This document shows positions 14,456 through 53,957 of a stretch of DNA of 64,000 nt, one piece after another. The stretch covers positions 91,810,070-91,874,069 of the forward strand of contig OX465282.1 of assembly GCA_949987705.1 (NCBI GenBank). The letters are read 5' to 3'. Source of the DNA: Thereva unica (lineage: Eukaryota > Arthropoda > Insecta > Diptera > Therevidae). The position numbers and the translations under genes were made by a program. How positions within the stretch are numbered: the stretch's first letter is position 1; the number at the start of each line of letters is the position of its first letter. The notes beneath the pieces are model-generated. The model was not told the DNA's origin. It did not search any database and was given only the letters and a program-made list of their open reading frames with translations.

Positions 14456-16781
14456 CATCCATCCAATGGCGCTACAGCCCAAATCGAGCCTTGGCCTCCT
14501 CTAGGGCATTTCTCCAAGTTTGACGGTCCCTTGCAGCATGTCTCCAGTTCCGGATGTTGAGCATTGACTCTGCGTCAGCCGTCACAGAGTCTATCCATCT
14601 CCTCCTGGGTCTACCTACTGGCCTACTTCCCGAAATTTCTGAAGCCGTTTTGGGATGCGATTGTCCTCCATCCTGATCACGTGGCCGGCTAGTCTCAATC
14701 TGTTGATTTTTATTAAAGTTGAGAGTTGTGGGTCGTCAAAAATTTCATACAACTCGTTGTTGTATCTTCTTCGCCATATTCCATCCTCTCTGATTGGGCC
14801 TATTATGCATCTGAGAATTTTCCTCTCGAACCTGTTGACTCGTTCCTCTATGTCCTGGGTCATAGTCCAAGTCTCGCTACCATAACACAGTACTGGTCGT
14901 ATTACTGTTTTGTAGAGTGAGAGTTTCGTTTTCCTGTGCACAAATCTTGAGTGCAGGATTTGTTTTTGGGCATAAAAGGCTCTATTAGCCAGTAGTATTC
15001 GTCTGGTTATTTCTTCTTTTTCTTCGTTTCTTTTTGTGATAGTAGACCCAAGGTAGACTGTTTTATCGACTACTTCTAGGTTATGTTCGTCGATGGTTAT
15101 ATTTCTTCCCATTCTAAATCGTCCTGCTCTGGATTGCTGCATCACCTTCGTTTTTTCTTCGTTAATCTTCAGGCCTATGTCCTTTGCCGCCTCTTTTAAT
15201 TCAACATAGACTTCTTTTGCTGCCAAAAAGGACCTTCCCACGATGTTTACGTCATCCGCATATCCAAGTAATTGTACCGACTGGGTAGCTATTGATGCAC
15301 TTCGCTGGACTGACGTTTTCCTTATCACCCATTCTAGGGCCAGGTTGAAAAGCATGGGGGCCAGTCCATCTCCTTGTCTAAGCCCTTGACGTACTTCGAA
15401 CTCCTCTGTTACAACATTTTGGATCCTTACTTTCGCAAGTGAGCTATTTGTGGCGCATTTGATTAGTTGTACCAACTTTGAGGGGACTCCTATTTCCGAT
15501 AAGATCTCGTATAGCCTCTCTCTGTTTATTGAGTCATATGCCTGTTGAAAGTCGACAAATATCTGGTATACATCTACATTCCTTTCCCAGGTTTTTTCCA
15601 GAATTTGCCTTAAGGTCAACAGTTGGTCCGATGTTGACCTGTTTGTCCTAAAACCAGCTTGATATTCTCCTATAAGGCTTTCCGCTATAGGTTCCAGTTT
15701 TTGTTTCACAAGGATTGTGAAGATTTTGTAGCTGGTGCTGAGGAGTGAGATGCCTCTGTAGTTTTTGCAGTTTAATTTATCTCCTTTCTTGTATATTGGA
15801 CATATAATCGCTTTCTTCCAGTCCTCTGGTATAACTTCTTCCTCCCAGATGGTGCATATGAGTTCGTGTAATGTTCGTAATAGTTGGGGTCCTCCTTCCT
15901 TTAGCAGCTCAGCTGCTATTCCATCGGCGCCAGGCGATTTGTTGCTGTTCTGCCTTTTTACAGCTTCCCGCACCTCATCCAGTGTTGGTGTTTCTATTGA
16001 AATGTTATCTTGGGGAATTACAAATGCCTCTGTCTCTGCATTCTCGTTTGATATGGAGATAAGATTCAATAGGTTCTGAAAATACTCTCTCCACCTTTCC
16101 TTTATCCTATCAGGATCTGCCAACAAGTTCCCATCTATGTCCTTGCAGATGTCCGTTCTTGGCTGGAACTTATTGGTGATCTGGCGAGTTCCTTTGTACG
16201 CTTGTCTAATTCTCCCTTCATTGAAGTCTTCCTGTATCTGTAAGATTTTCCTATTTAGATATTCCCTCTTCTTCTTTCTGCACAGCTTGTCTGCGATTTT
16301 TCTTTTTTCCTTGAAGACTTCCATCCTTGCTCTTGTTGGCCTTGCGATGTACTCTCGGTGGCTCTGGTTTCTTTCTTCAATTGCGGTTCTACAGTTTTGG
16401 TCAAACCAATCAATTCTAGTCTGTCTGGGGGCCCAGCCTAGTGCCTCTTCTGCTGCTCCCTTTATGCTGCTTTTGACCTGTTCCCATTTGTCGTTGATGC
16501 TGGGCTGCTCATCTACCTCTCTCAAGTTTTGTACGACAGCATGTTGGTAGGCATCTCTTATTTCTTCCCGTTTTAGCTTATCTATATCGTATTTTGGTTG
16601 AGTTTGCACTCTATGCGTTTTAGTTGCTATCCGGGTTCTCAATTTCACTTTGACTAGATAGTGGTCCGAGCCACAGCACGCTCCTCTCATTGTTCTTACG
16701 TCCAGTATACTCGTGGCCCCTCTTCTTTCAATTAGGACGTGGTCAATTTGATTATTAGTTACTCCGTCTGGTGATTGCCAC
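14456..16781 (-). mobile_element. RTE-type LINE, 5'-truncated, with 13-bp target duplication
   Basis: The insertion is bounded by a perfect direct repeat GAACACGAAAAAC at 14,443-14,455 and 16,782-16,794, the target-site duplication of target-primed reverse transcription. Read on the minus strand, the element starts inside the endonuclease domain. It continues through the whole reverse transcriptase and ends with a short ATGG-repeat tail (GGATGGATGG) instead of poly(A), typical of RTE elements. The perfect duplication and almost open frame suggest one of the youngest insertions in the window. Loss of most of the endonuclease makes it incapable of autonomous movement. Confidence 0.9.
14472..16781 (-). 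pseudogene. RTE LINE endonuclease (C-terminal end) and reverse transcriptase ORF
   Basis: The frame is open from the truncation point at 16,781. It reads SPDGVTNNQIDHVLIERRG, then GSDHYLVKVKL, the last motifs of an APE-type endonuclease. Counting from the internal Met at 16,690, the RT domain has SPGADGIAAELLK (252-264), AGFRTNRSTSDQ (345-356), the first Asp block FVDFQQAYDS (378-387) and the catalytic YADD (477-480). The C-terminal CYGSETW (602-608) and GHVIRME follow. The frame reaches a stop at 14,615, but in the next frame the text continues VGRPRRRWIDSVTADAESM and ends at 14,472. One small indel near 14,635 has therefore clipped about 50 residues. Both catalytic Asp of YADD are intact. 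This is the best-preserved protein-coding region in the window. Confidence 0.9.
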
Positions 16782-16794
16782 GAACACGAAAAAC

Positions 16795-18029
16795 ATAATA
16801 GAGTAAATTAAGATCTGTGATTGGCGCTACAATGAAATGAAGTCATAAACGATCATGTAAAAGCCTGAAAGATTATTGTGAAGGTGATGATGTGTGTGGT
16901 GGAACTGGAAGGAAAACGGCCACTTTGAGATACTTCCAGTTGATCATACGATTTCAACTCTACTGTAGAATACAAGAGAGATAATGGCAGGCAATTGAAC
17001 CAAAACGATACAAATTGAATTATTGTCTTGCATCACGGCAAAGCCCGACCCTACATCTTTGATGACCCGTCCGCCAAAAAGGATAGTTTGGTTGGAAAGT
17101 TTTGATTCCTCCACCGTATAGTCCAGATATTCACAGCAGCGTCAGCCAGGACTATCTGCTAAATGTGGATATTCTCAATAATAGTGAACATGTCGTATTT
17201 GAACTCGTTTTGGTTATATCCGTGTAACATAGCCTTCTTCCGATCAAGACAGAATAGCTGGCTTGGTCCACTACCGGCCGCTACTCAATGGCTATACCTG
17301 ATTTTCCATATTATATTACAATCTTTCTTCTGAAATATTAATTCTTTGGCATTATCTATATTTTTGTCAATTCAAATTAGTCTGGAAAACATGGAAATGC
17401 CAGGGAAATTTGATCTTAAGAAATAGTGGCCAACCTAACTTTATTTTTCGTTTGAGTTCATTAAAGACCGGTACTATAGGGGACAGCCTTGTTGCAGTCT
17501 TATGGCTGCTTAAAAGAACGATTTCTATCGAACGACCAATATAGGCTGTAGAATCGGCGCATCTTAGATGGAAGTAGGGAAGTGAGTAAGGAAGACAATG
17601 ATAATCTATTTGCTTGCACATGTGAGATACTAGTTGTGATTTTCACTCGAATTTTCAGCATTTTTTTATAATAGTTAAAAATCAGATATAGAGGATTGGG
17701 GACAACTATTGGCGGAACTTCCAGCTGGCCCAGTCTACTCCATCCAGTTATGTGATCGATACCTTGATTTACTTTAACCTGGTGATATATTCCAGGGCAC
17801 ATGCGTTTATGACAAATGACAGAAAGTGTTGGAATGGACGTGCTTGTGACTGACTATCTGGAGGCTCTCCTGACACGGAACAATTAGTTATGTACCTGCA
17901 ACTTGACTAGCGTATAATGGAGTATCGTGGATGCGATAGCCGAGGTGGAACAGGACTCGGAACATCCCAGGCTGCTAGGGATCCTTGCACGCCTGGGGAC
18001 CTTCGCCGACTCGACCTGGTCTCGCCATG
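16795..18029. other. Unassigned sequence
   Basis: No recognisable gene or terminal repeat. Small ORFs (17,367-17,802, minus) lack domains. Confidence 0.4.
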
Positions 18030-31219: not shown

Positions 31220-32111
31220 TAGATTTTTTCAAATTCCGTGACACAAAAAATTTGAACAGTTCTGCGCACCTCATTGCCAAATTTTATAAATATTGTTCTA
31301 TCATTTCCCCGCTTTTTAGTTAAAACGGCAACAAACGCAGAAAAAACTCAACAAAATAATTTGGGAAGGGATGCGCGCATGCCGAATGAATAAAGTTAAT
31401 CAATCTTTATATGTGTTGAGCAGAGCTTTTAAATACATGTAAAACTCCTGCTCAACCAAGTCAATTTATCCATCGTAATAAGCATAATTTTACTATAATT
31501 ATGCTAAATATTTCTCATCCCTAAATTTAAAATAAATTAAAAGAATTGCTGGAAAAATTTCTTTTAAAGATATGATCATTTTCATTCATAAATTGAGAGT
31601 TCTCCGCAGCCGCAAGCAACACAACCTCCCCAAGCAGAAGCGCGTATGCGACTGGCGGAAAATGTCAACAATCAAGTAATCAAAGTGATAAAAATACAAA
31701 TTTCTTATTTTTTAGTAGAATACAATAAAAACAAATACAATACAAAAACCTTAAAATAAAAAAATAATAAAAACGGGTGTTTTTCAATCATAATTTGTAA
31801 ATTTTTTAAATAATCATTGAAGTCCCAGAAAGATACACCTCCCGGTAGCAATACGCAGTCGCGACTGATTACATGGCAACAAGTGATTTGATAGGAGGAG
31901 TTAACTGAAGCTTTTGTCTGAACTTTTAAACATTTTTAAGAGCTTAGCTGGGGAATATGCGCGGGATGTCACGAGGTTTGAAAACAACTATACATGGCAG
32001 CAAGTGATTTGATAGGAGGAGTTAAATGAAGCTTTTGTCTGAGCTTTTAAACATTTTTAGGAGCTTAGCTGGGGAACATGCGCGGGATGTCACGACGTTT
32101 GAAAACAACTA
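31220..32111 (+). mobile_element. TA-flanked MITE, copy 1
   Basis: The ends TAGATTTTTTCAAA...CCGTGAC (left) and GTCACGACGTTTGAAAAC...TA (right) are inverted, with TA dinucleotides immediately outside (31,218-31,219; 32,112-32,113). A second copy in the opposite orientation spans 40,316-48,378 when its insertions are included. TA duplication suggests Tc1/mariner-type mobilisation. It is 892 bp long without coding capacity. The right end is duplicated in tandem: the unit of about 122 bp at 31,871-31,992 repeats at 31,993-32,114, ending in GTCACGA(G/C)GTTTGAAAAC each time. Confidence 0.85.
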
Positions 32112-32255
32112 TACATACACATGAGAACTCCCGAAAATATTCTCATGAGAGCGCCTGTCATGAGAACGTTATTTGCTACCTCAGCCATGAGAATATTCTT
32201 ATGAGAATACCAAAATTTACGTTGAGAATATTCTCTTCGTCTATCAGCACCTTTA

Positions 32256-35529: not shown

Positions 35530-37370
35530 TATTTTAAAACGATTTTATTAGCTGGCTTTCTTGTCTGTCTGTTTGTCCGGTACAAATCTTGTAATCGATT
35601 TTTTGAATACTTCTGGTTACCCGATCACCCTGAAATTTTGCACACAGCTTCAGCTCCGATGACAATGTAATATGGAATACTCACTACACCGTTAGATCCT
35701 TGGGGCCGTCTCAAGAGGCCGGATTACTGTTTTCTTCAAGGAACAAATTTTGCAATCGATTTTTCAAATACTTCCGGATATCCTATCATGCTGAAATTTT
35801 GCATACAGCTTTAGCTCCGATGAAAATGCAATATGGTATACTCAATATACCTTTATATCCATGGCGGCCGTCTCAGGAGGGCGGATTGAAATATTCTACA
35901 CAACACCTTCGACATGGGTATCAAATGAAAGGGTATGATAAGTAGAACACCATAAGCAATATAGTATACTCAATATATCGTTTGGTCCATGGCGGCTATC
36001 TCAAGAGGGCGGATTACCATTTTCTTCACAACCCCTCGACATGGGTATCAAATGAAAGGGTGTGATAAGTAGATCACCATAAGCAATATAGTACACTCAA
36101 TATATCGTTTGGTACATGGTGGCCATCTCAAGAGGGTGGATTACCATTTTCTTCACAACCCCTTCGAGATGGGTATCAAATTAAAGAGTATGATAAGTAG
36201 AACACCATAAGCAATATAGTATACTCAATATATCGTTTGGTCCATAGCGGCCATCTCAAGAGGGCGGATTACCATTTTCTTCACAACCCCTTCGAGATGG
36301 GTATCAAATGAAAGAGTATGATAAGTAGAACACCATATGCAATATAGTATACTCAATATATCGTTTGGTCCATAGCGGCCATCTCAAGAGGGCGGATTAC
36401 CATTTTCTTCACAACCCCTTCGAGATGGGTATCAAATGAAAGAGTATGATAAGTAGAACACCATATGCAATATAGTATACTCAATATATCGTTTGGTCCA
36501 TAACGGCCATCTCAAGAGGGTGGATTACCATTTTCTTCACAACCCCTTCGAGATGGGTATCAAATTAAAGAGTATGATAAGTAGAACACCATAAGCAATA
36601 TAGTATACTCAATATATCGTTTGGTCCATAGCGGCCATCTCAAGAGGGTGGATTACCATTTTCTTCACAACCCCTTCGAGATGGGTATCAAATTAAAGAG
36701 TATGATAAGTAGAACACCATAAGCAATATAGTATACTCAATATATCGTTTGGTCCATAGCGGTCATCTCAAGAGGGCGGATTACCATTTTCTTCACAACC
36801 CCTTCGAGATGGGTAATAAATGAAAGAGTATGATAAGTAGAACAATATAAGCAATATAGTGTATTCAATATGCCGTTTATTCCATAGCGGCCATCTCAAG
36901 AGGGCGGATTACCATTTTCTTCACAACCCCTTCGACATGGGTATCAAATGAAAGAGTATGATAAGTAGAACACCATATGCAATATAGTATACTCAATATA
37001 TCGTTTGGTCCATAACGGCCATCTCAAGAGGGCGGATTACCATTTTCCTCACAACCCCCTCGACATGGGTATCAAATGAAAGAGTATGATAAGAAGAACA
37101 CCATAAGCAATATAGTATACTCAATTTATAATTTGGTCCATGGCGGCCATCTCAAGAGGGCGGATTACCATCTTCTTTACAACTCCTTCGAGATGGGTAT
37201 CAAATGAAAGTGTGTGATAAGTAGAACACCATAAGCAATATAGAATGCTCAATATATCGTTAGGTTCATGGCGGCCATCTCAAGAGGGCGGATTACCGTT
37301 TTCTTTACAACCGCCTCGACATGGACATGAGATGAAAGGGCATCATTACTAGAATACAATAGGCTATGTT
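35530..37370 (+). repeat. Minisatellite array, unit of about 128 bp
   Basis: Units share GTATACTCAATATATCGTTT, GGTCCATAGCGGCCATCTCA, AGAGGGCGGATTACCATTTT and GATGGGTATCAAATGAAAGA. Unit starts at 35,964, 36,091, 36,219 and 36,347 give a period of 127-128 bp, and about 11 regular units run to about 37,370. The left edge (35,530-35,963) holds older, longer units with an extra TTTTGCA(C/A)ACAGCTT(C/T)AGCTCC block. The gradient from diverged edge to homogeneous centre fits unequal exchange. No ORF. Confidence 0.9.
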
Positions 37371-40313: not shown

Positions 40314-40402
40314 TATAGATTTTTTCAAACGTCGCACAGTGGTCTGAAATCCCCAAAACCTGGACAAAATTAATTTACTACCGTAAGAAAAATTATTTTT
40401 TT

Positions 40403-40890
40403 ATGAAAATCGGTATAGGGGGGTTTTCGGGGTCGCTGAGCAAGAATCCGTTATCAGATTTTCAAAAAACAAAATGGCGGATTCAATATGGCGACCAACT
40501 TTATGAAAAATTAAGCAAATTTGCTAAAAATCGGTATATGGGGGTTTTCGGGGTCGCTGAGCAAGAATCCGTTATCAGATTTTCAAAAAACAAAATGGCG
40601 GATTCAATATGGCGACCAATTTTATGAAAAATTAAGCAAATTTGCTAAAAATCGGTATATGGGGGTTTTCGGGGTCGCTGAGCAAGAATCCGCTATCAGA
40701 TTTTCAAAAATCAAAATGGCGGATTCAATATGGCGACCAGCTTTATAAAAAATTAAGCAAGTTTGATAAAAATCGGTGTATAAGGGTTTTCGGGGTCGCT
40801 GAGCAAGAATCCGTTATCAGATTTTCAAAAAACAAAATCGCGCATTCAATATGGCGACAAACTTTGTTAATAATTAATCGAATTTAATAC
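40403..40890 (+). repeat. 121-bp tandem repeat inside the Transib-like element
   Basis: Four copies of a unit containing TTTTCGGGGTCGCTGAGCAA, CAGATTTTCAAAA and GGATTCAATATGGCGACCA start at 40,424, 40,545, 40,666 and 40,787 (period 121). 121 is not a multiple of 3, so the frame changes from copy to copy. The overlapping ORFs with similar peptides (GVAEQESVIRFSKNK, FSGSLSKNPLSDFQK) are an artefact of repetition rather than a gene. A related inverted scrap (AGCGACCCCAAAAACG) lies near 41,804. Confidence 0.9.
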
Positions 40891-40976
40891 AAATCTATAA
40901 TAAGGGGGTTTTGTGCTTGCTCATTATTAAAAAAGTTAAATTAGAGCATAAGAAACACTTAATTTATTTTTAAAAA

Positions 40977-41330
40977 TTAAACAAATTCGCCTACATCACT
41001 ATTGTCTTCTGATTGTGAATCAAAGCTTTCACTACATTTAATGTTTGGCACACTTATTAATTCCATCGCTTTTGGTGACAGAGATCGTAATTTACGCTTT
41101 GGAAGTTTGCGCAAACTATTAATAAAAGGATCTGATGTCTCTAAAAGCCTAGATAAGACATCTTCCATGTTTTCTACTCTACCGCATTTTCTCGCAAATT
41201 GTAGCCTGTACCTTTTCACGTTTTTATTGCACGCTTCTTGGGCCTCTTCCGACATTTGGCCAATTGGAAGCTCAAGTGCATCGGAAATGCGAGCGCCGTG
41301 AATTAAAATTTTGTGCACAGTAGTAGACAT
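40977..41330 (-). pseudogene. RAG1-like/Transib transposase C-terminal fragment
   Basis: A 117-residue minus-strand frame begins STTVHKILIHGARISD and continues LPIGQMSEEAQEACNK, NVKRYRLQFARKCGR, ENMEDVLSRLLETSDPF and INSLRKLPKRK. Its spacing follows the end of the RAG1 core: an H-K-x-L-x-H block, IGxxxSE, a NK pair, RxxRxxxAR and MEDVL. The Glu cluster at residues 28-32 sits where RAG1 and Transib carry the third catalytic acidic residue. The upstream part holding the two catalytic Asp residues is missing, and an in-frame stop lies just upstream, so no active enzyme is made. The C-terminus is acidic (SQSEDNSDVGEFV). Confidence 0.75.
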
Positions 41331-43257
41331 AGACCCCCTTAAGAGTTGAAAAAATTAATTGTTTGCTGATAATACCTTTTGAACCAAATTTCAAACAAAA
41401 AGCAAAAAAAAATCTTTTTTATATAAAGTTGTTTTTATTCTAGTAGGGGTAGTTTTAACCCCTTAAGGGTTGAAAATAATTTATTTTTGCCTGACAGTAC
41501 GCCCACAATCGAATTTGAAGCATAAACTTGAAAAAAAAAAAATTTGTTTATAATTTTTGCCATTTTTCGCCAATTTAGGGGTACTTTCAACCCTTAAAGA
41601 CTACCCCTTATCATAAAGTCCGCCTTAATTTAGTACAAATCAACCACCTTCGCAAATAAATATTAAAAAAAGTGCATTTCATCGCATTAGTTTTCGTTAT
41701 TACTGAAATAATCGCGAAAAGCCCTAAAAAGGTGTGCTTTTTGCATTTTTAGGGGTGACGCCCTAATTTGAGGACCGCGGGACCTCGATTTTCGTGATCA
41801 GCGACCCCAAAAACGTTTAGGGTTCGATTTTCTTAATGGTGTTATTTTGGAACACCATAACGCGCGTTTTGTATGGACTAGAATAGGACGCTCAAAACTA
41901 GCAAATATGTAGTATATCGTGAATAGAATGACATGGAGCAAGCAGGAGCAGCTGATTTTTTTATATGTTTTGCAGAGATGATTAATAAACAATCACACGC
42001 GTATTTCATAGTGGAAGTCGGTGGAAGTTTGTACTTAGCCATCAATTTATAAGCCGAATCGTTATTCAAATCACCACAATTTACTACATATTTGATCGCA
42101 AATAAACAATACAATTATTTATTTATGTTCATTTCATTAACACAGTATAATTGTACTTACTCTCTGGAGAAGAATCCATTTTACACAATAGAAAATGGGT
42201 TAACGTATTACTATTTACACGCAAAAACGTAACACGTGCTTTTGCTCGGAAAGAAGGCGCTGCGTTTGGCGTGTTCGCGGCTCACTTTCCAAATGGAATA
42301 CAAAAGAGAATTTGAACATCTGCCTCTTGCCAAGGGCCTTGAAATACTCCAGGGGGGTCACTATACCTAACCCACGCGAAAAAAGTACCTAAATAAAAAC
42401 TTTCGTTTTGGTACTTTTGTCCAGGTTTTGGGGATTTCAGACCACTGTGCGTCGTGGCATTACGCGCATCTACCCCAGCTAAGCTCTTAAAAATGTTTAA
42501 AAGCTCGGACCAAGCTTTATTTAGCTCCTCCCATCAAATCACTTGCTGCCATTTAATCAGTCGCGACTGCGTATTGCTACAGGGAGGTGTATTTTTCTGG
42601 GGCTGCAATGATTATTTAAAAAAATTACAAATTATGAATGAAAAACGTCCCTCTTTATATATTTTTTTATTTTAAGGTTTTTGTATTTTACACATTTGCT
42701 ACAGAAATACTTTGTAGCATTTCTACTAAGGAAATACGAAATTTCTGTTTTTATCACTTTGATTACTGGGAGTCAATTCTGGTTCGGTGCAGTGAAGTCG
42801 TGAAAAAAAGTTTACACTTGACGTTTTACACACCTTTTTTCACATTATCACTGCACTCAACCTGAAAAAGCGATTCTCGTTGCATTCGTGTAAACTTAAT
42901 GCTGAATAAATAGGCTAGTGCAAATACGATTGAACTTGGGAATTTGTGTCTCAGGCTCTGAATTATTTTTTTTTCTTTTGTTTTTGGTTCTGTAATATTG
43001 GTTTCTAAAGTATCGATATAATTTTTATATATAGTAAATAAGTAATTTATGTATAATATAAAATTATTGGCTTAGTTGTTATAATTAAAAATATTAATTT
43101 ATCTAAAATCTTAGGCAGTTACAGCCCTCACGCACAAACATTTGTTTATGTGATGGGCTTAGCTTAGTTTTGTTTTAAGATACATTTTATAATTTGTGAT
43201 TTTTTATTAAGCTGCAATAAAAACAAAAAAAAAACGATTTAAATGCTTCAAAACAAA

Positions 43258-44085: not shown

Positions 44086-45114
44086 AGCTACAATCCGACG
44101 GTTTTTTATGTAAGCAAACTCCTGAAGACGCCGACGTAATGATTGTTAATACCGCAATTGAACTGGCAAAAAATGATGATAAAACAGTCGTTATCGTAGG
44201 TCAAGATATTGATTTATTAGTACTTTTGCATCAACTAAATTCAAATGGGCTACGTATTTTTTTCCACAAACCAGGCTCAAGCAACGAAAAAGATTCATTT
44301 TATACATACATCAAATTGTTTCAAACATGAATCGTACACACATATAATAGCATTTCTTCACTGTTTTTCGGGTTGCGACACAACTTCCGGTTTTGCTGGA
44401 AAAGGAAAAAAAAACAATAGTGAAATCATTATTGAGCAACAAAAATTTATCAAGCTTAGCCAGTATTTTTTATAAAAAAGATGCAGACCAAATCTCTATT
44501 GCGAAAAATGGATCTCAATAGCTGGTATTTACAAAAGTAAAAGAAGGGATACATCATTAAATCAATTACGATTTCAGCTTTACCAGCAGGCAACTCAGAA
44601 ATCAACTTTTAAGTTAGAAAAACTTCCCCCCACTGAAGAAGCTGCTGCACAACACTCCTACAGAGCTTATTACCAATTGCAAACTTGGGTTAGTTATTTG
44701 GACGACGAGTCTGATAATAAGAAAGCAAAGCAGTGGGGGTGGAATGAACATTTAGGTAGGCTCGTGCCTAAATTCATTTCAGACAGTGCCGAGTTGATTC
44801 CCCAGAAATTATTGAAATGCATAAGTTGCATCTGTGAAAGTGGTTGTAATTCGCAAAGATGTGGTTGTCGAAAACATGGCTTAAAATGCAGTAATTTATG
44901 CATTAAATGTCATGAAAATTGTTCAAATAGAGACAACGAAGTATTTGAACAAGTAAGTGATTCAGACGAGCTTATTGATGAAGAACCAGCAAAGAGTCTT
45001 GATATCGAAAATGAAGACATCGATGACATCGATAATTTTGAAGAGCCTACCCAATTTGAAATTTCGATCGATGAAAAAGAAAATCCGCAATGTAAAAAAC
45101 CTAAATTTAATTAA
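44086..45114 (+). pseudogene. XPG/PIN-like nuclease plus CXC-like Cys-rich protein, decayed
   Basis: The first frame (44,086-44,330) reads EDADVMIVNTAIELAKNDDK and VVIVGQDIDLLVLL. This resembles the acidic metal-binding strands of PIN/XPG nucleases (ExD ... DxD). After a frameshift, AFLHCFSGCDTTSGFAGKGK recalls the XPG-I GCD motif. A gap with stops follows. A third frame then carries LEKLPPTEEAAAQHSYRAYY and QTWVSYLDDE, and a cysteine-rich block CISCICESGCNSQRCGCRKH, GLKCSNLCIKCHENC, with ten Cys spaced like a CXC/tesmin motif. It ends in an acidic tail at 45,114. The family is widespread and repetitive in arthropods and cnidarians. At least two frameshifts or stops make this copy non-functional. 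Its role is unknown. Confidence 0.65.
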
Positions 45115-50776: not shown

Positions 50777-52003
50777 TCAGAGTGTATTTGTATTTCTTCT
50801 TCTTCTTTCTTTTTTAAACTCCTTTAATCCCTCATGGGGCATATGTAGGGCGGAAACAGTTGCCCTCCAGCGGACTCTGTTTTGCGCGACAGCTCTTAGC
50901 TCCGACCAGGATCTCCCAGTTGTTGCGGCTTCTTGTAGTAGGGTTCTCCTCCACGTTTTTCTAGGTCTTCTTACTCGACGGGAACCTTGCGGATTCCAGT
51001 CAAGGTCCTGTTTGGCTAGATTTTCGTTTTCGCGTCGCAAGGTGTGGCCAACCCAATTCCATTTCCTTCGCCTGATTTGGTCGTCTATCCTTTCTTGGCC
51101 GGCACGGCGCCATAGTTCTTCGTTTGAAATTCTATCTTGCCAGCGGATTATTAGGATACGACGAAGGCATCTGTTGATGAAGACTTGTAGGCGCCCTGTG
51201 ATGAATTGGGTGACTTTCCATGTTTCGCAACCGTACAAAAAAACTGCCTTAACGTTGGAGTTGAACAGCCGCAATTTGGTGTTAGTGGAGATCACCGTTG
51301 ATCTCCATATGCGGGAGAGGCATGCATATGCGCCTCGTGCTTTATTTATTCTGGAACTTACGTCTTCTTCTGCCCCACCATTTTCGGTAATAATGCTACC
51401 GAGGTAGCAGAATTTGTTTACCAGTTCCACGTCACGGTTATTCAGCGCTGTCCGTTCAATGGTGTTTGCATTTATCCGCATTTCTTTAGTTTTAGTCGGA
51501 TTTAGCCTTAAGCCTGCTGGACTACTTTCTGTTGCCAAATTGTTTAACATGTTTTTGAGGTCCTGGTGTCTGTGGGCCAGCAAACAGATATCATCGGCGT
51601 AGTCGAGATCCTTAAGGCGGTCTACCAAACCCCATTGTATGCCGCCTGTTCTATTATCTAGAGCGCCGACAAGAATGTCATTTATTACTATAAGAAATAG
51701 TAATGGCGAAAGTAGGCATCCTTGTCATACTCCTGAGCTCACTTCAAAGCTGTCGGATAATTTTCCATTATGGAGAACTCTGCATTTGGAATTGTTGTAT
51801 AGGGCTTTTATCAATTCTATTATTTTATCAAGCAGTCCACGTCGCCGTAGTGCCTGCCAAATGAAGCTCCTATTAACCGAGTCGAACGCTTTCTCATAGT
51901 CTACGAAAGCAATTTGTATTTGCAGGGGTAAAATGGTAGAAACGGCCTCAGGGACCTTTGGTGGTGGCGGTACATCAAAGAGACAAGTCCTGAGAAACGC
52001 CAT
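50777..52003 (-). pseudogene. RTE-X-like LINE reverse transcriptase, one nonsense codon
   Basis: One frame runs from 52,003 to 50,777, broken only by a TGA at 51,725-51,727. Before it lie IQIAFVDYEKAFDSVNRSFI (first catalytic Asp block) and NNSKCRVLHNGKLSDSFEVS. The stop replaces the Arg of the RQGC block, since the text resumes QGCLLSPLLF. After it come LKDLDYADDICLLAHRHQDL with the intact YADD, FCYLGSIITENGGAEEDVSS, FLYGCETWKV, RRRKWNWVGHTLRRE and GSRRVRRPRKTWRRTLLQEA. CGA to TGA is a simple transition. The endonuclease and RT fingers are missing, and the 5' breakpoint is near 51,930-52,000. Fragments of the same family occur at 1,885, 23,805 and 63,480. Confidence 0.88.
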
Positions 52004-52029
52004 GCGCGATGTTAGGTCTTCACGACCTA

Positions 52030-53957
52030 AGATTTTCAGATATGCTACTCTATAACTCGGACCACAAACTAGTTAGTACCAATTTCCCATAGCCATCTTC
52101 TACCCCAACCAGTACAGTTCCTAAAAGAACTGTCTAGCACTATGGGAAAGCCAACTGGTTGAGACTTATTCGCTTCTTTCAAGCCACTGATTGGAATTTG
52201 CGTTTCCGTAATGCCTGTACGAACTATGCAGCTCTTTGTATGTCTAAAATCATTCGGACAGGAATGTGTTTCTTCATTCCCCATTTGACCAAATCTATGA
52301 AGCCTCGGCCAAATAGATGGTTTAATGAGGAATGTAGGAACGCAATGAAAGCCAAATAAGCCGCCTATAGACCGTGCAGATGTTCCCCAAACGAGCCACT
52401 TCGGCGGGAGTCGAGAGACTCCTGTAATTCCATTATTAGGAAGGACAAATCAACATTTGATAACAAATTGCGAAGTAAGATCCTCAACACAAGTGTGGGC
52501 AGCAAAAACTTCTGATCTTTGGTAATTTCCATCAAGAAGAATTTTACTTCTTCCACAACTCCTCCATTTATTTATGAGAAGGAGATGATAACGGAAAGCA
52601 AATTCAAGGCCGACCTATTAGCATCTTTGTTCGCTTCAAATTCTTTAGCTGAAACTGATACCTCACCCCCGGCTCTCGAGTGCCACGCCCAATCAATGGA
52701 CGGAATTTTCTTCAGGAATCGTGAGGTGTTTATACGTCTCAAAGTTTAAATGTCTCAAAGAGCTTGACGACGTCAATAAATCCACTGTAACTACATCTCC
52801 CCCAATGGTACTCAAGAAAGCGACCCTTTAAACCACCGTCCAATAGCAATTACTTCTATTCTCTCCAAAATCAAATCATGGAGACAAAAATCGATAGAAG
52901 GCTGAGAAAATATCTAGATTCCAACGAAATCATACACGACAAGCAAAAGATCTACTGACGACCTTCTTATCTATCTAACCGAGCACCTCAACCAAAGCAT
53001 CCATAACTACGGTTAGTCTGGTCTGGTTGCTTTAGATATTTCCAAGGCTTTCGACACAATATGGCATCCCGTTCTTGCTGTCTAAACTCCAAGCTATTGG
53101 TATCCACTCAGTTCTAAGGAACTGGGTTGAGAGCTTTATTTCTGGTCGTTCAATCACGGTAATATTGGATGGCGTCGAATCCAACCCTCAATCTCTCTCG
53201 GCAGTATTCCCCAAGGATCTATGCTCTCTCCTACCCTCTTTTTTATATTCATAAATGATTTGCTCTCAATCCCCACCAACCCACTTCATAGTTTTGCCGA
53301 TGACGGTACTCTGCGTTACTCCTACCCTTGGACAGCATAAGACAAGCAATCGCCCAGACCTTGTCTCTCAGACCGAGAGCTCATGTCCAACTCTCTTAAC
53401 ATGGCCAGTGAACTCATTCTTGATTGGGCCGCAAGAATCATGTAGAATTCAACCCATCGAAATCAGGTACTGTCTTATCTCCACCAAACCTGTACAAACC
53501 TCCCCCTATTGCTCTTCCATCGACCCTTTAAGTCACCGTAGGAATGTAGCAGCCCTCAGCAAATTTTACCGATATTACCATAGCGAATGTTCCACTGAAA
53601 TTAGAAACCTCCTGCCTGCTCGGCAACTTGTTGCCGCAACACAAGACTAGCCAAATTGGCCCACCCCTACACACTACAGCCCTCCTCTTCGTGCACATTA
53701 CTGTTTAGTAGTTCGTTTATAAATAGAACAACTCGATTGTGGAACTGTCTTCCGCAAACGATGTTTCCGAACTCATATAACATCTCAGAGTTCAAACGTA
53801 AGGTTCATCGACATCTACTCACGCACCCTAACCTATCCCTTCTCTTCTATCCTTCAGATCAAGCTTACTACTAGATATTGCACCATGACTTTAATTACAT
53901 AACTTACTAGTGGTACAAAGGGTGACTCCTCAGCTTGACCATGTCACATAAAAAAAG
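52030..53957 (+). pseudogene. CR1/Jockey-like LINE, multiply frameshifted
   Basis: Plus-strand blocks appear in order. YNSDHKLVSTN at about 52,040 is the endonuclease SDH. NWLRLIRFFQATDW and PNRWFNEECRNA (52,160-52,359) form the linker. FIYEKEMITESKFKADLLAS follows (52,570). At about 53,010-53,330 come VALDISKAFDTIWH, SIPQGSMLSPTLFFIFINDL and HSFADDGTLRYSY, the RT palm with an intact FADD. RTTRLWNCLPQTMFPNSYNI then SEFKRKVHRHLL ends the ORF near 53,877. A 3' UTR closes with CACATAAAAAAAG. Many stops and shifts show it is old. The 3' UTR shares blocks with the SINE tail. Clade naming is approximate. Confidence 0.8.

What the first reader, a model, noticed from the sequence alone, without database searches (positions are those of the whole stretch)
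40335..42449. Transib-like element whose ends carry a perfect V(D)J signal heptamer and a nonamer-like block
Seen: both 35-bp ends are identical, begin CACAGTG, have 22 bp and then ACAAAA(T/G)TA, and are flanked by CGTCG. Known: the recombination signal is CACAGTG, a 12- or 23-bp spacer, then ACAAAAACC; RAG1 is thought to derive from a Transib-type transposase, and Transib ends resemble the 23-spacer signal. Inferred: this family has an unusually signal-like end, with all seven heptamer bases and six of nine nonamer bases (ACAAAA) at 22 bp. Few Transib families match this closely, so it is informative about how the signal arose.
Basis: partly seen in the sequence, partly recalled or inferred. 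Interest (0 to 1): 0.85.

Follow-up and report, generated by a model that had tools for sequence, protein, structure and literature searches.

The report
Disabled insect-type Transib jumping gene
This is an ordinary, internally deleted cousin of the jumping genes from which antibody-gene recombination is thought to have arisen; its ends resemble the antibody-gene cut signal in ways already described for such elements, so it adds a member but no surprise.

Summary
Window 40335-42449 is a 2,115-bp element with 38-bp inverted ends (37 of 38 identical): CACAGTG, 22 bp, ACAAAA(T/G)TA, flanked by the 5-bp duplication CGTCG. A related repeat in the window shows the uninterrupted target. The element encodes the last 117 residues of a Transib transposase (HzTransib E 4.8e-16; a profile of 51 relatives E 3.2e-42, positions 454-566 of 571), with the catalytic glutamate. 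The other ~80%, with both aspartates, was not found. So it is a non-autonomous Transib, probably moved in trans.

The stronger inference is not supported. Papers already describe Transib ends with heptamer, nonamer-like block and 20-22-bp spacers, some identical to V(D)J signals (one paper says HzTransib-type ends have little nonamer likeness). Six of nine nonamer bases at 22 bp occurs at 2% of random places and in 10% of shuffled ends; the best match (7/9) lies at a 10-bp spacer. The CTT1 tail motif of RAG-like proteins was not found. Other copies, host and autonomous partner could not be reached, so the family consensus is untested. New member of a known kind; low interest.

The parts
40330..40334 (.). 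left copy of the 5-bp target-site duplication CGTCG
   Evidence: single copy in a related uninterrupted repeat
40335..40372 (+). left terminal inverted repeat, 38 bp: heptamer CACAGTG 40335-40341, 22-bp spacer 40342-40363, block ACAAAATTA 40364-40372
40399..40912 (.). 121-bp unit repeated 4.2 times, subterminal array
40977..41330 (-). 117-aa open frame = C-terminus of a Transib transposase, keeping the third catalytic residue (E32 of the frame, codon 41235-41237, aligned to HzTransib E436 and to a mouse RAG1 glutamate that I take to be E962)
   Evidence: HzTransib D126/D225/E436 from PMC6941560 (passages); the RAG1 number 962 is recalled
41331..42411 (.). right interior, 35% G+C, no detectable transposase homology; the rest of the transposase (profile positions 1-453) was not found
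42412..42449 (-). right terminal inverted repeat, 38 bp: CACAGTG, 22 bp, ACAAAAGTA on the minus strand
42450..42454 (.). right copy of the target-site duplication CGTCG
31736..32116 (-). related repeat without the insertion (31870-32116 is a 2-copy 121-bp tandem); aligns across the joined flanks; one unit has a single CGTCG at the site, the other CCTCG

Best explanation
A non-autonomous, internally deleted Transib-superfamily DNA transposon, probably in an arthropod genome. A full-length Transib transposase made by another copy binds the 38-bp ends, nicks just outside CACAGTG, makes hairpins on the flanks, frees the element with blunt ends and joins it 5 bp apart into a GC-rich target, which yields the CGTCG duplication. 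Shown here: ends, duplication, uninterrupted target, transposase C-terminus, and no trace of the rest. Inferred from known Transib and RAG biochemistry: mobilisation in trans and the hairpin mechanism; inferred from the named protein relatives: an arthropod host. The heptamer identity reflects the cleavage site shared by Transib and RAG; the nonamer-like block is most simply one A-rich stretch among several in the end.
For: Ends and duplication. Joined flanks align to 31736-31997 and to 31991-32116 through the junction, at 88.6% and 88.1% identity, with CCTCG at the site in the first and one CGTCG in the second. C-terminus: HzTransib chain 6pqn E 4.8e-16, mouse RAG1 0.13, RAG1L (6b40) 0.66. 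28 of 30 candidate proteins at E<=1e-3. A profile of the 51 proteins of 500 aa or more, among 260 held, matches the element only at positions 454-566 of 571, E 3.2e-42. P0148, one of the 51, aligns to residues 9-481 of the 497-residue HzTransib chain, E 2.8e-127. Catalytic glutamate kept here and in 223 of the 224 relatives, of 260, in which the motif region was recognised. 5-bp duplications of Transib elements: PMC3276498 (passages); GC bias: PMC8289069 (passages). Hairpin mechanism of HzTransib: PMC6941560 (passages).
Against: One copy only. No second copy, autonomous partner or host could be reached (genome search unanswered 12 times; no relatives confirmed in viral contigs and genome contigs). 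The right interior could in part be a nested insertion. The Pfam RAG1 model hits the frame only below its cut-off. The target motif reported for two Drosophila Transib families is CCANTGG (PMC3276498), unlike CGTCG, though target preference may differ between families.
Confidence: 0.93

Rival explanations
1. A Transib family whose ends are truly bipartite like a 23-type V(D)J signal: the transposase's nonamer-binding domain reads ACAAAA at 22 bp, so the family preserves an RSS-like architecture.
For: CACAGTG is the exact consensus; ACAAAA begins at spacer 22, near 23; the identity of the two ends stops at base 38, just where a 7 + 22 + 9 signal would end. PMC9435367 (passages) reports an equivalent nonamer-binding domain in Transibs.
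Against: 6/9 or better at spacer 22: 1.8% of random window places, 2.5% of element places, 10% of dinucleotide shuffles of this end; allowing 21-23 bp: 4.7%, 6.3%, 21%. The better nonamer match is 7/9 at spacer 10. Presence in both ends is not independent, since the ends are inverted repeats. HzTransib ends show little or no nonamer similarity (PMC8289069, passages).
Confidence: 0.12
2. A RAG-like (RAGL) transposon, of the lineage of ProtoRAG and RAG1/RAG2, rather than a Transib.
For: Shared CAC heptamer start, 5-bp duplication and DDE-type C-terminus.
Against: Closest solved relative by far is HzTransib; the CTT1 motif Cx2Cx3GHx4C was not found in the frame, nor in the last 120 residues of 260 relatives, many of them fragments and all fetched by likeness to this tail or its kin; the end fits the protostome RAGL end consensus at 6 of 17 places; 4 of the element's 7 frames of 60 aa or more were scanned with Pfam and none hit RAG2.
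Confidence: 0.01
3. A composite: a Transib remnant with other transposons nested in it, so the right interior is not Transib sequence.
For: Profile homology to the transposase stops sharply at about 41330-41333, where imperfect direct repeats (41335-41366, 41459-41490) and an inverted pair (41463-41478, 41582-41597) begin.
Against: I did not establish a duplication or clean ends for a nested element, and transposase homology does not resume beyond it.
Confidence: 0.2

Closest known systems
HzTransib (Helicoverpa zea Transib; PDB 6pqn and five further entries)
   Same: Transposase C-terminus aligned over 97 residues, with the catalytic E; terminal inverted repeats; 5-bp duplication, GCTCG there and CGTCG here (PMC1852546, passages)
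   Different: HzTransib is full length (3,518 bp, 489 aa by PMC1852546) and its enzyme cuts in vitro (PMC6941560, passages); this element is 2,115 bp and lacks about 80% of the transposase. HzTransib ends are reported to have little or no nonamer similarity (PMC8289069, passages)
Transib families with symmetric 20-22-bp spacers (Kapitonov and Jurka 2005, as redrawn in PMC8355894 Figure 2B)
   Same: Heptamer, 22-bp symmetric spacer, nonamer-like block
   Different: No difference could be measured: their end sequences are in a figure that is not held, and the 2005 paper is not held
RAGL transposons (ProtoRAG and protostome RAGL)
   Same: CAC start, 5-bp duplication, related DDE transposase
   Different: CTT1 motif not found; protostome RAGL end consensus met at 6 of 17 places; no RAG2-like frame recognised in the 4 of 7 frames scanned
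Vertebrate 23-type recombination signal
   Same: Heptamer identical; ACAAAA of the nonamer
   Different: Spacer 22 not 23; last three nonamer bases differ; both ends are of the same type, so there is no 12/23 pairing

Membership tests
Transib superfamily | transposase homologous to Transib/HzTransib | tested here: met
   117-aa C-terminus, HzTransib E 4.8e-16; profile E 3.2e-42
Transib superfamily | 5-bp target-site duplication | tested here: met
   CGTCG on both sides; single in one uninterrupted unit, CCTCG in the other
Transib superfamily | terminal inverted repeats starting with a CAC heptamer | tested here: met
   CACAGTG at both ends, 37 of 38 bp identical
Transib superfamily | complete DDE triad in the element (autonomous copy) | tested here: not met
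   only E found; profile positions 1-453 not detected. Lowers 'autonomous', not 'Transib': non-autonomous derivatives are usual among DNA transposons (general knowledge)
Transib superfamily | multicopy family with the same ends in the genome | not testable with these tools
   The genome search unanswered in 12 tries; one copy in the 64 kb
V(D)J-type 23 recombination signal | heptamer CACAGTG | tested here: met
V(D)J-type 23 recombination signal | nonamer ACAAAAACC at 23 bp | tested here: not met
   3 (left) and 4 (right) of 9 at spacer 23; 6 of 9 at spacer 22; 7 of 9 at spacer 10
RAGL transposon | CTT1 motif in the RAG1L C-terminal tail | tested here: not met
   not found in the frame; motif from PMC7204232 (passages) and PMC9435367 (passages)
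RAGL transposon | protostome end consensus CACTWMCAAACKTYKBB | tested here: not met
   6 of 17 places; consensus from PMC7204232

The most novel reading that the evidence does not exclude
The family is an extant Transib whose transposase really reads a heptamer plus a nonamer-like block 22 bp further in, so that its ends could be cut by vertebrate RAG1/2 as they stand and would give a living model of the signal's ancestor.
Probability: 0.08. Interest if true: 0.5.

Novelty: new member of a known kind. Interest (0 to 1): 0.17.

Why it matters
It adds one more Transib element, with a full consensus heptamer, to the set used to argue that antigen-receptor recombination signals came from transposon ends. 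It would matter more only if the family's transposase were shown to need the ACAAAA block. The useful caution is that a nonamer-like match in an A-rich transposon end is easy to get by chance.

Tried and rejected
Host genome: the genome search 'own' with the element was sent 12 times and never answered, so copies, a consensus and an autonomous partner were not examined.

Relatives as DNA: exact 26-bp end in viral contigs, 0 matches. Transposase alignments against viral contigs (19 and 82 pattern stretches) and genome contigs (5 and 46), none confirmed by tblastn. Alignment A1 held the window frame and 24 of the 28 proteins; A2 held 23 of the 51 proteins of 500 aa or more. Plasmids by tblastn with P0148: none; phages and E. 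coli genomes were not searched. Records of or near the window's genome may be left out of these collections, as the tools say. A comparison with other Transib ends therefore rests on papers alone.

A second transposase fragment in the window was suggested at 1852-1640 by one row of 148; the 51-protein profile gives no row there up to E 10, so I reject it. Weak tblastn pieces in the element outside the frame (E 0.69-0.93) are likewise not supported by the profile. Five rows extend 15-75 bp beyond 41333 (to 41348-41408); I read this as alignment overrun, since the profile stops at 41333.

The Pfam RAG1 match of the frame (E 0.036, below cut-off) was not used as evidence of RAG1 membership.

Papers: PMC1131882 (the 2005 Transib paper) is not held; what I know of its figures is recalled and not used as a test. 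Passages only were seen of PMC4411706, PMC7204232, PMC8289069, PMC9435367, PMC1852546, PMC10322711, PMC6941560, PMC2686171, PMC3276498 and PMC9723617; of PMC8355894 passages and section 6. Other papers were seen as search listings only. Transib plus CACAGTG, matched anywhere: 3 papers; in PMC8289069 the passages seen use that string for the vertebrate consensus, the other two were not opened. I do not claim that this family is absent from print.

Full report
What was checked. The element at 40335-42449 is as described. The ends are identical over the first 35 bp and over 37 of 38 bp. They start CACAGTG, and after 22 bp comes ACAAAATTA on the left and ACAAAAGTA on the right. Both sides are flanked by CGTCG. 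The heptamer-gap-ACAAAA pattern occurs only at these two places in the 64 kb, against 0.02 expected. A scan of the window for CAC...GTG pairs with matching 5-mers outside found this pair only.

It is an insertion. The right flank belongs to a repeat that occurs again at 31736-32116. When the two flanks are joined with one copy of the duplication, they align across the junction to two stretches there, at 88.6% and 88.1%. One unit reads TTTTCAAACGTCGTGACATC and the other has CCTCG in place of CGTCG. So the target sequence occurs uninterrupted with one copy, and the 5-bp duplication most likely arose on insertion.

What it encodes. The one frame with a recognised match is 40977-41330 on the minus strand, 117 aa. 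It matches HzTransib (PDB 6pqn, E 4.8e-16), and mouse RAG1 and RAG1L only weakly (0.13 and 0.66). Three protein searches gave 28, 457 and 905 relatives at E<=1e-3, of which 28, 120 and 120 were listed. Of the 260 proteins held, 51 have 500 aa or more. A profile of these 51 matches the element at positions 454-566 of 571 and nowhere else; the next best row in the whole window has E 2.9. P0148, one of the 51, aligns with HzTransib over chain residues 9-481 of 497, E 2.8e-127. Counting in that alignment, the aspartates of GFDG and MIDGK stand 17 places below the published D126 and D225, and the glutamate of SEEASE 17 below E436 (PMC6941560, passages). The window frame keeps that glutamate (codon 41235-41237); both aspartates lie in the part that was not found. 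Hence this copy should not make an active transposase.

Other anatomy. A 121-bp unit is repeated 4.2 times next to the left end. The right interior has 35% G+C and contains imperfect direct and inverted repeats from about 41335; it may hold a nested element, but I did not establish one.

Mechanism. By established Transib and RAG biochemistry (HzTransib makes a hairpin on the flank and a blunt cut at the element end: PMC6941560, passages), an intact transposase would act on both ends in trans. Only the ends, the duplication, the uninterrupted target and the missing transposase part are shown here; movement in trans is inferred. The near-identity of the ends suggests, without proof, that the insertion is not old.

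How signal-like are the ends? The heptamer is the exact consensus. But papers already report this kind of likeness: Transib ends with heptamer, nonamer-like block and symmetric 20-22-bp spacers, and a few with 12 or 23 +/- 1 bp, some with heptamers and nonamers identical to canonical ones (PMC8355894, Figure 2 legend, and section 6; PMC6941560, passages). Against this, PMC8289069 (passages) says that most Transib families have symmetric ends such as HzTransib's, with clear heptamer but little or no nonamer similarity; so families differ, and this one may lie towards the similar side. The heptamer alone says little, since mouse RAG1/2 uses many CAC heptamers and the consensus is only marginally preferred; CACAGTG followed by GT, as here, is listed under one of the better spacers in a 12-signal assay (PMC9723617, passages).

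Test of the nonamer. Scores against ACAAAAACC along both ends: 6/9 at spacer 22, 3/9 (left) and 4/9 (right) at spacer 23, 7/9 at spacer 10 (CCCAAAACC), 6/9 at spacer 11; on the right end 6/9 also at spacer 24. With 20,000 draws each, 6/9 or better at exactly 22 bp came up in 1.8% of random window places, 2.5% of random element places and 10.0% of dinucleotide shuffles of this end's bases 8-42; at 21-23 bp in 4.7%, 6.3% and 21%; at 12 +/- 1 or 23 +/- 1 bp in 9.1%, 12% and 39%. The two ends are inverted copies and count once. That end identity stops at base 38, where a 7 + 22 + 9 signal would stop, is a mild point for the bipartite reading.

Position in the family. The frame lacks the Cx2Cx3GHx4C tail motif, which PMC7204232 (passages) gives for RAG1L and PMC9435367 (passages) calls CTT1, shared by RAG1L and Subgroup I Transibs; the same paper says that Subgroup I ends are all asymmetric and that Subgroup II has both kinds and another tail. 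A symmetric-ended element without that motif is on this evidence Subgroup II-like, on the side further from RAG1. No tree was made.

Limits. The host is not identified.

Noticed in passing
14615-16807 (-), 50777-52072 (-): Reverse-transcriptase frames: RVT_1 at E 3.7e-35 in a 730-aa frame, and neighbouring frames with RVT_1 (E 4.5e-10; 0.0023, below cut-off) and DUF6451; probably non-LTR retroelements.
   Followed up: no
35828-37338: A 128-bp unit repeated 11.8 times, 92% matches; satellite-like array.
   Followed up: no
31736-32116 and 42450-42700: A repeat present at both places, partly a 2-copy 121-bp tandem at the first; the Transib sits in the second.
   Followed up: partly
41335-41597: Imperfect direct and inverted repeats around CCCTTAAGGGTTGAAA, starting where transposase homology stops; possible nested small element.
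   Followed up: no
44476-45114 (+): 212-aa frame with a cysteine-rich stretch and no Pfam match at E 0.1; a chance-level tblastn row from a Transib relative lies just before it at 44148-44258, E 0.49.
   Followed up: no
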